From Conexibacter arvalis (GTDB lineage Bacteria; Actinomycetota; Thermoleophilia; Solirubrobacterales; Solirubrobacteraceae): a stretch of DNA of 64,000 nt. The position numbers and the translations under genes are program-made. Location: positions 602,147-666,146 of the forward strand of contig NZ_JACHNU010000002.1 in the NCBI RefSeq assembly GCF_014199525.1, written 5' to 3'. A model generated the notes under the pieces. That model was not told the origin of the DNA and ran no database searches. It saw nothing but the letters and a program-made list of their open reading frames with translations. Numbering within the stretch: position 1 is the stretch's first letter; the number at the start of each line of letters is the position of its first letter. Below, in pieces: positions 29,635 through 42,086 of this stretch.

Positions 29635-29661
29635 GATCCCCCGGCCGGCCGCCGGGGGATC
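29635..29661. terminator. GC hairpin after aldehyde dehydrogenase
   Basis: Perfect 10-bp arms GATCCCCCGG and CCGGGGGATC enclose a 7-base loop, 24 bases past the stop. There is no U-tract. It probably forms the 3' end of the aldehyde dehydrogenase mRNA. Confidence 0.65.
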
Positions 29662-29756
29662 GCGCTCACGGGGCGCACGCAATTCGGGCGCGTCGGCGCT
29701 CACCGAGCTGTCACAAGAACGCTGCTGCGGCTAGTTAACGATTGATGAGAAGCGCC

Positions 29757-29863
29757 GGGGACCGTCCGTGAAATCCAGTACGGTCCCCACCTACCAACCC
29801 GGTCGACGGGGCTTGCGAGCAACTTTGCGACGCAAGCCCCGTTGAACGGGTAGGAGCGACCCG
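29757..29863 (+). promoter_or_regulatory. structured 5' leader of the sigma-factor gene
   Basis: Two hairpins precede the GTG start. The first pairs GGGGACCGT (29757-29765) with ACGGTCCCC (29780-29788). The second pairs ACGGGGCTTGCG (29806-29817) with CGCAAGCCCCGT (29831-29842), 12 bp perfect, extended by ACCCG (29797-29801) with CGGGT (29847-29851). The same CGGGT can instead pair with ACCCG at 29859-29863, placing the AGGAG ribosome-binding site in a 7-base loop. The two pairings exclude each other, as in a translational switch. The region just upstream (29710-29750) is AT-richer and is the likely promoter. The ligand or trigger, if any, is unknown. Confidence 0.6.
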
Positions 29864-31453
29864 GTGGAAGCCTCTTCGATTCCAGCCACGGCAGGCCTCA
29901 CGCGACAGAAGCCGCGAGCCGCCGTCGGCCCCCTCTTGCGCCTGCGCTCCGACGAGCAGCTCGTGAAGCTGTTCCGCCAGGGCAACGAGGAGGCCTTCCG
30001 CGCGATCCACGATCGCTACCGCGCCCGCCTCTTCGCGTACACGCGCCAGATGCTGGCCGGCTCCAGGCAGGACGCCGAGGACGCGCTCCAGGACGTCTTC
30101 GTGCGCGCCTACGGGGCGCTGCGCGCCAACGATCGCGAGGTCTCGCTGCGCGCCTGGCTCTACCGCGTCGCGCACAACCGCTGCATCGACGAGCTGCGCC
30201 GGCCGGCGCCCCCGCCGCCGGAGGTCTTCGAGCAGATCCGCCCGCCGGCGAACGACCCGATCGCCGAGACCGAGCAGAAGGAGTCGCTGCGGCGGCTGGT
30301 CGAGGACGTAAGGCGCCTCCCCGAGCAGCAGCGCTCGGCGCTGCTGATGCGCGAGATCGTCGGCATGTCGTACGTCGACCTCGCCGCCGCGCTCGACGTG
30401 ACCGTCCCGGCCGTCAAGTCGCTGCTGGTGCGGGCGCGGATGGGGCTGGCACAGGCCGCCGAGGCGCGCGACACCGCCTGCGTCCAGATCCGCGAGCAGA
30501 TCGCCGACGCCCACGACCGCGGCGTCCGCGCCAGCGGGCTGGTCCGGCGCCATCTGCACGACTGCGCCGGCTGCCGCGCCTACCGCAGAGAGCTGAAGTC
30601 GATGCGCGAGCGCTTCGCCGCGCTGACCCCCGCGACGATCGGGCCGCTGGCGCTGATCGCGAAGCTGCTCGGGATCGGCGGCGGCGGCGTCGCCGCGGGC
30701 GGCACCGCCGCGGCCGGCGGCGGCGCCGGAGCGGCCGCGGGCGGCGCCGCGGCGGTCGGCGGCGCGGCCGCGGTCGGCAGCGGCGTGACGGCCGGGCACG
30801 TCGCGGCGGTCGTCGCGGCGGCGGTCGTCGCCGGCGGCGGCGCCGTCGAGGTCAAGCGCAGCCTGAGCCCGCAGCAGCCGCCGCGCGAGGCGGCCGTCGT
30901 GCGCGTCGAGAGAGCCCCCAGACCGCAGCCCGTGCTCGCGGCGACGATCGCCGCCCCGAAGGCGCTCCCCCTCGCCCCGGCCGCGCCGGCGCCGGCCGCC
31001 GCGAGAGCGGCGGCGAGACCGCGCCGCGAGGCCGCCGTGCAGAGAGCGGCGAGAGGCCGCGCCGGGCGCGCCGTCCCCGTCGCCGTCGCACCGCCTACGC
31101 AGGGGCCGCCGACGACCGTGCCGATGGAGCGGCCGGCCGCCGGTAACGGCGGCGCGGCCGCGCCGGTCGACGCCTCGCTCGACGATCCGGTCACCGCCCC
31201 CGTGACCGAGCCGACGACGACCGAGCCGACGACCGGCGGCACGACGACCACCCCGACGACCGGCGGCACCGGCAGCGGCACCGCCCCGTCGACCGCGGCT
31301 CCCGGCCCGACGACCGGCACCGCCAGCGGCCCGGCGACGCCACCGAGCGGGACGACCGCGCCTCCGACCGGCTCCCCCGCTCCGCCCGCCTCGCCGGCGA
31401 CGACCGGCGGCGCCGGCACCGCTCCCAGCAACACCACCCCGCCTCCGCGCTGA
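29864..31453 (+). CDS. ECF sigma factor with zinc-finger and membrane-type C-terminal extension
   Basis: A 529-residue protein whose first 200 residues are a sigma-70 family ECF factor: region 2 at about 40-110 (NEEAFRAIHDRYRARLF, DALQDVFVRAYGAL) and region 4 at about 145-195 (LPEQQRSALLMREIVGMSY). A zinc-finger anti-sigma-type motif H-x3-C-x2-C follows (His230, Cys234, Cys237). Next come a Gly/Ala-rich hydrophobic stretch ending around 309-328 that could cross the membrane, a basic Pro/Ala linker, and a Thr/Pro/Gly-rich tail of 130 residues. So sigma factor and anti-sigma-like parts are in one chain, perhaps membrane-tethered. The GTG start has TAGGAG seven bases upstream, inside the folded leader. 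Confidence 0.88.
   Translation: MEASSIPATAGLTRQKPRAAVGPLLRLRSDEQLVKLFRQGNEEAFRAIHDRYRARLFAYTRQMLAGSRQDAEDALQDVFVRAYGALRANDREVSLRAWLYRVAHNRCIDELRRPAPPPPEVFEQIRPPANDPIAETEQKESLRRLVEDVRRLPEQQRSALLMREIVGMSYVDLAAALDVTVPAVKSLLVRARMGLAQAAEARDTACVQIREQIADAHDRGVRASGLVRRHLHDCAGCRAYRRELKSMRERFAALTPATIGPLALIAKLLGIGGGGVAAGGTAAAGGGAGAAAGGAAAVGGAAAVGSGVTAGHVAAVVAAAVVAGGGAVEVKRSLSPQQPPREAAVVRVERAPRPQPVLAATIAAPKALPLAPAAPAPAAARAAARPRREAAVQRAARGRAGRAVPVAVAPPTQGPPTTVPMERPAAGNGGAAAPVDASLDDPVTAPVTEPTTTEPTTGGTTTTPTTGGTGSGTAPSTAAPGPTTGTASGPATPPSGTTAPPTGSPAPPASPATTGGAGTAPSNTTPPPR

Positions 31454-41869: not shown

Positions 41870-42086
<217 letters not shown>

What the first reader, a model, noticed from the sequence alone, without database searches (positions are those of the whole stretch)
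29757..29866. Switch-like leader RNA in front of a sigma-factor gene
Two strong hairpins precede the start, and CGGGT (29847-29851) can pair either with ACCCG at 29797-29801, extending the big hairpin, or with ACCCG at 29859-29863, looping out the ribosome-binding site. Mutually exclusive pairings over a start site are the signature of a translational riboswitch, thermosensor or protein-bound leader. The 13-nt loop AGCAACTTTGCGA could be a recognition site.
Basis: partly seen in the sequence, partly recalled or inferred. Interest (0 to 1): 0.72.

Follow-up and report, generated by a model that had tools for sequence, protein, structure and literature searches.

The report
Self-promoter inside a leader hairpin
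The supposed riboswitch in front of this soil-bacterium sigma-factor gene is mostly its own ECF-type promoter: the 'recognition loop' is the promoter's -35 box, and only the hairpin folded around it in four close relatives is unusual.

Summary
The two hairpins are real (z about -7) at the stated coordinates. The gene (29864-31453) encodes an ECF sigma factor fused to an HxxxCxxC anti-sigma-like motif, in a Conexibacter-like genome. In 51 of 70 orthologue loci the shared upstream element is AAC-N17-GTT just before the start (0 of 70 at N12-16 or N19-22; shuffle mean 0.5): an ECF-type promoter (P2). Its -35 lies in the 'recognition loop', its -10 in the hairpin's 3' arm, so P2 transcripts should start near 29850, without the leader. 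A strict form of the motif occurs once in each of 26 of 146 family genomes, 25 times in front of this gene, which suggests autoregulation. The rival ACCCG pairing at 29859-29863 is broken in all three relatives that keep the hairpin and costs 6-7 kcal/mol: no conserved switch. The hairpins occur in four Conexibacter genomes only; there, all varying pairs of the big hairpin stay paired, five of six through G-U, which fits a sense RNA from an upstream promoter (P1, 29709-29738). Its role is unknown; predicted ribosome-site occlusion is weak. No TSS data. Verdict: a probable autoregulatory sigma promoter with an unusual clade-specific hairpin around it.

The parts
29864..31453 (+). ECF sigma factor gene, GTG start, 529 aa: sigma region 2 (50-113), region 4 (149-192), H-x3-C-x2-C at residue 230, hydrophobic stretch about 304-330, Pro/Thr/Ala-rich tail
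29853..29856 (+). GGAG, presumed ribosome-binding site
   Evidence: sequence; invariant in the four relatives
29821..29826 (+). P2 -35 element AACTTT (core AAC 29821-29823; context GCAACTTTG) inside the H2 loop
29840..29843 (+). P2 -10 core CGTT (GTT 29841-29843), 17 nt after AAC, in the 3' arm of H2
29791..29856 (+). Hairpin H2 (29791-29821 with 29826-29856), spans P2 and the ribosome-binding site
29757..29788 (+). Hairpin H1 (29757-29765 with 29780-29788)
29709..29738 (+). Putative distal promoter P1: TGTCACA (29709-29715) - N17 - AGTTAA; two boxes invariant in four genomes with a variable, constant-length spacer between
   Evidence: resemblance to ECF41 promoters
29859..29863 (+).

Best explanation
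The region is a two-promoter control region of an ECF sigma-factor gene, not a riboswitch. P2 (AAC-N17-GTT, 29821-29843) is the gene's own ECF-type promoter, conserved across the family; most likely the encoded sigma factor drives it in positive feedback. Transcripts from P2 should start near 29850, just before GGAG, and carry no leader. In a small Conexibacter clade a distal promoter (P1) and two hairpins lie upstream; only P1 transcripts would carry them, with the P2 sequence folded into hairpin H2. Shown by sequence comparison: the P2 motif, its place and spacing; conservation of H1 and H2 in four genomes; non-conservation of the alternative pairing. Inferred: that P1 and P2 are active, which sigma uses each, the start sites, and the role of H2 (most likely a modest damping or processing of P1 transcripts).
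For: AAC-N17-GTT 20-90 nt upstream of the start in 51 of 70 orthologue loci, 5 more at N18, 0 at N12-16 and N19-22; shuffles mean 0.5, maximum 3. A matrix from 45 sites outside the six same-genus loci ranks the window's P2 first of 127,926 positions scanned on both strands of the window (16.0 bits, next 10.5) and finds sites above 8 bits in 60 of 70 loci against a shuffle mean of 0.9, maximum 3 (the 45 training sites are among the 70 loci). The strict pattern AACTT-N15-GTTASAGT: 26 matches in 146 genomes, one each in 26 genomes, against 4 for the reversed control; 25 of the 26 lie just upstream of this gene's orthologues (one search read). The hairpin is not needed for P2: 47 of the 51 loci have the motif without the hairpin. 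ECF52 factor SCO4117 is reported with two promoters and proposed positive autoregulation (passages of PMC5826349).
Against: No TSS or expression data. The clade's -10 has diverged (CGTTGAAC, not CGTTAgAGT), so the window's P2 scores 16.0 bits against a training median of 29.8. 14 of 70 loci lack the exact AAC-N17/18-GTT. The strict pattern has no match in the window's own genome or in the other six genomes of its genus. That this sigma reads P2 is inferred; another sigma could. P1 fits neither the sigma-70 scan (0 found) nor the ECF41 -10 consensus exactly.
Confidence: 0.76

Rival explanations
1. Riboswitch, thermosensor or protein-bound leader: two exclusive pairings of CGGGT toggle access to the ribosome-binding site.
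For: The pairings exist in the window sequence; H2 is strong and conserved with pair-preserving changes in four genomes.
Against: Alternative pairing broken in 3 of 3 relatives and 6-7 kcal/mol worse; loop is a -35 box; hairpin found in only 4 of 70 orthologue loci; no Rfam match at gathering score.
Confidence: 0.06
2. Promoter choice decides translation: P1 transcripts fold H2 over GGAG and are translated poorly; P2 transcripts start past the hairpin and are translated.
For: GGAG is paired in H2 in the window's minimum-energy fold and its pairs are invariant in four genomes; P1 boxes are invariant at fixed spacing; in G029 the gene upstream is not the aldehyde dehydrogenase, yet P1, H1 and H2 are kept.
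Against: Predicted cost of opening GGAG is only 3.5-4.1 kcal/mol for P1 RNAs against 2.5-3.3 for P2 RNAs, so a strong block is not predicted; the GGAG-pairing columns never vary and so give no covariation evidence.
Confidence: 0.25
3. H2 acts as an RNA processing or attenuation site on P1 transcripts (for example double-strand cleavage or termination), not on the ribosome.
For: Long, nearly perfect stem kept better on the sense strand (model scores 88-100 bits on + against 24-46 on -).
Against: No terminator-like site with a T run was found; nothing here tests cleavage.
Confidence: 0.25
4. H2 is a DNA-level dyad (operator or cruciform) over P2.
For: It covers P2 from -35 to -10.
Against: Five of six varying pairs in H2 change on one side only and stay paired as G-U, which a DNA dyad does not reward; arms of about 30 nt are long for an operator (general knowledge); no second copy in the genome.
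Confidence: 0.12

Closest known systems
ECF52 sigma factor SCO4117 of Streptomyces coelicolor (PMC5826349, abstract and passages read)
   Same: ECF sigma fused to a zinc-finger domain, transmembrane region and Pro-rich tail; two promoters, one with its own putative motif; positive autoregulation proposed.
   Different: Motif CSGYN-17bp-SRHA differs from AAC-N17-GTT; no carbohydrate-binding domain found here by Pfam; no leader hairpin appears in the passages read.
ECF48 / ECF52 / ECF53 groups with fused anti-sigma-like C-terminus (PMC8999054, passages read)
   Same: Actinobacterial, C-terminal ZAS-type zinc finger and transmembrane helix; regulation by proteolysis expected.
   Different: Group membership of this protein was not tested; no NCBIfam equivalog reached its cut-off among the 25 shown.
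ECF41 promoters TGTCACA-n16-CGTC (PMC3426412, abstract and passages read)
   Same: P1 has exact TGTCACA, with AGTT 17 nt after it, within the reported 16 +/- 1 spacing; the seven genus genomes carry 22 exact TGTCACA-N16/17-CGTC sites against 1 reversed control.
   Different: P1 -10 reads AGTT, not CGTC or TGTT; no ECF41 factor was shown to read it.

Membership tests
Autoregulatory ECF-type promoter | AAC-type -35 and GTT/GTC-type -10 at fixed spacing just upstream of the sigma gene, conserved in orthologues | tested here: met
Autoregulatory ECF-type promoter | Transcription starts there and depends on the encoded sigma | not testable with these tools
   no expression data
Translational riboswitch / thermosensor | Conserved mutually exclusive pairings | tested here: not met
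Translational riboswitch / thermosensor | Match to a known RNA family | tested here: not met
   no match here at gathering score; only chance-level hits
Translational riboswitch / thermosensor | Ligand or temperature response | not testable with these tools
   needs probing
Structured cis-regulatory leader RNA (general) | Pair-preserving sequence change across relatives | tested here: met
   142 of 143 cells paired against 41-47% when slid; only four related sequences
ECF52 sigma factors | Zinc-finger (ZAS) motif after sigma region 4 | tested here: met
   H-x3-C-x2-C in 30 of 30 proteins of which at least 250 aa were held
ECF52 sigma factors | C-terminal carbohydrate-binding domain | tested here: not met
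   no such Pfam match
ECF41-type promoter (P1) | TGTCACA -35 | tested here: met
ECF41-type promoter (P1) | CGTC/TGTT -10 at 16 +/- 1 | tested here: inconclusive
   AGTT at N17

The most novel reading that the evidence does not exclude
Choice of promoter, not a change of fold, is the switch: a second sigma (perhaps ECF41-like) makes a long P1 mRNA in which the gene's own self-promoter is folded into a hairpin that pairs the ribosome-binding site or is cleaved, while the sigma's own P2 makes a nearly leaderless mRNA that escapes. The same bases would be selected both as DNA promoter and as RNA hairpin.
Probability: 0.2. Interest if true: 0.6.

Novelty: new variant of a known kind. Interest (0 to 1): 0.33.

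Why it matters
It turns a false riboswitch lead into a testable promoter assignment for a sigma factor with orthologues in about half of the 146 family genomes examined (71 strong rows), with a consensus whose strict form lies almost only in front of the gene itself. It is also a caution: a promoter inside an inverted repeat can look like a recognition loop. The clade-specific hairpin, apparently under sense-strand pairing constraint around a promoter, is a small open question.

Tried and rejected
Rfam at gathering score over the window gave only a tRNA-family match elsewhere; at permissive E-value only chance-level microRNA and sRNA models matched. A further copy of the leader was sought: none in the own genome (the second match is the hairpin's other strand), and full-length matches only in four of 146 family genomes (its many other matches, best E 0.004, are short and were not followed). 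A homologous hairpin in L007 (same-genus G028) looked similar by fold, but the covariance model does not find it and its leader is not exceptional (z -1.4); not claimed. A sigma-70 reading of P1 was not supported by the scan. A search for further P2 targets in the own genome with GCAACTT-N14/15-CGTTR found only P2 itself, against 1 for the reversed control; CAACTT-N15-GTTASAGT found none. Paper searches showed no description of this leader in their listings; only three papers were opened, in passages.

Rows and limits: one search lists 71 strong orthologue rows (E 1e-68 or better); 70 loci were analysed (G087 was not fetched; G060 contributes two rows). Some are near-identical pairs (G132/G133, G134/G135), so counts are not independent. 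In L145 the start was not found correctly; it was kept as a miss. The 30 proteins are those with at least 250 aa held; the other 40 loci were not counted. Alignment A2 compared unequal stretches and was used only for orientation.

Full report
WHAT IS THERE. The sequence and coordinates of the finding are right. The RNA of 29740-29880 folds with z -7.0. H1 pairs 29757-29765 with 29780-29788; H2 pairs 29791-29821 with 29826-29856. The gene at 29864-31453 has sigma regions 2 and 4, an H-x3-C-x2-C motif at residue 230, a hydrophobic stretch near 304-330 and a Pro/Thr/Ala-rich tail. The motif is present in 30 of 30 orthologue proteins long enough to check. That the single-contig genome G031 is C. 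woesei is recalled from its size.

THE CONSERVED ELEMENT IS A PROMOTER. 145 of 146 family genomes have some match to the sigma protein, and 71 rows form a clear orthologue group (E 1e-68 or better). Of these, 70 were read. AAC-N17-GTT lies 20-90 nt before the start in 51 of 70, AAC-N18-GTT in 5, and no other spacing from 12 to 22 occurs; composition shuffles give a mean of 0.5 and a maximum of 3 for N17. The majority consensus of the 51 is GCG.AACTTCC ... CCGTTA.AGT, the form of an ECF promoter (recalled general knowledge; compare the ECF promoters). A matrix built without the six same-genus loci puts the window's site first of 127,926 positions. The strict pattern AACTT-N15-GTTASAGT occurs once in each of 26 of 146 genomes (reversed control 4), and 25 of those 26 sites lie directly before this gene (one search read); G125 is the exception. 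The simplest reading is that the sigma factor reads its own promoter.

WHY THIS UNDOES THE SWITCH READING. The loop 29818-29830 contains the -35 (AAC 29821-29823), and the -10 core (GTT 29841-29843) is in the 3' arm. Transcription from P2 would begin at about 29850 (inferred from the usual distance), leaving some 14 nt of leader and no hairpin. The second ACCCG (29859-29863), needed for the exclusive pairing, is not kept: 5 of 18 readable cells are unpaired, each of the three relatives breaks it, and sliding it by one column pairs as well. Forcing it costs 6.3-7.3 kcal/mol in leader-length RNAs, but only 0.4 in an RNA that starts at 29847.

WHAT REMAINS UNUSUAL. The whole leader is found in four genomes of 146 (G000, G031, G030, G029). 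A covariance model of H2 finds the same four of 70 orthologue loci strongly and, in 146 genomes, those four plus three weak matches that were not followed. In these four, 142 of 143 cells of H1+H2 form standard pairs, against 41-47% when the partners are slid; three pairs change on both sides. In H2 all 107 readable cells are paired; six pairs vary, five by one-sided changes that stay paired as G-U and one on both sides. Sense-strand model scores are 88-100 bits, antisense 24-46. This favours selection on a sense RNA rather than a DNA dyad, though four related sequences are few: in the shuffle control 9 of 500 reach the observed pairing, and 165 of 500 reach the number of pairs with a double change. 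Such an RNA needs a start upstream of H1. A block of two invariant boxes, GCTGTCACAA and GCGGCTAGTTAA, separated by ten variable positions of constant length, fits; the pattern TGTCACA-N15/19-TAGTTAA is found once in each of the same four of seven genus genomes. In G029 the gene upstream is not the aldehyde dehydrogenase (my reading of the sequence is the reversed start of a ccdA-like gene), yet the block is kept. TGTCACA is the reported ECF41 -35 (passages of PMC3426412). The seven genus genomes have 22 exact TGTCACA-N16/17-CGTC sites against 1 control, one of them upstream of an ECF41-like sigma in this genome; P1's AGTT at N17 is an imperfect match.

HOW IT LIKELY WORKS. P2 gives positive feedback once active sigma is present; the fused zinc-finger/membrane part presumably holds the sigma inactive, as expected for ECF48/52/53 (passages of PMC8999054). 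P1 would supply first transcripts. Whether H2 lowers their translation is doubtful on energy alone: opening GGAG costs 3.5-4.1 kcal/mol in P1 RNAs and 2.5-3.3 in P2 RNAs. Processing or attenuation is an equally open option. Apart from these energies, this paragraph is inference.

AGAINST. The clade's P2 -10 has drifted from the family consensus (16.0 bits against a training median of 29.8). If P2 were dead here, P1 would be the only promoter and the structured leader would matter more; I hold this possible but less likely, because the -35 and the -10 core are invariant in the four genomes. But some invariance is also expected from the hairpin, so it cannot by itself separate the two; that AAC-N17-GTT also stands in the two same-genus loci without the hairpin, L007 and L013, is better evidence that the core is kept as a promoter.

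Noticed in passing
29635-29662: Near-perfect G+C-rich palindrome GATCCCCCGGCC...GGGGGATC after the aldehyde dehydrogenase stop (29610), perhaps its terminator; no T run.
   Followed up: no
41878-41928, minus strand: Partial tRNA family match (Rfam 32.1 bits); not checked with a tRNA finder.
   Followed up: no
L166 (G000:C3:100877-101776) and upstream site G000:C3:102047-102073: ECF41-like sigma with SnoaL-like domain and an exact TGTCACA-N16-CGTC site upstream.
   Followed up: partly
L039: Record titled Bifidobacterium breve MAG carries a 73% identical solirubrobacterial sigma gene; contig length and position equal those of G141, so the name is probably wrong.
   Followed up: no
L216 (G042:C180:14230-14300): Weak match to the H2 model outside the sigma loci studied (E 3.6e-5 for one genome); context not read.
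   Followed up: no
G125:C124:16004-16031 (L237): The only strict P2-type site of 26 that is not in front of an orthologue listed; downstream gene not read.
   Followed up: no
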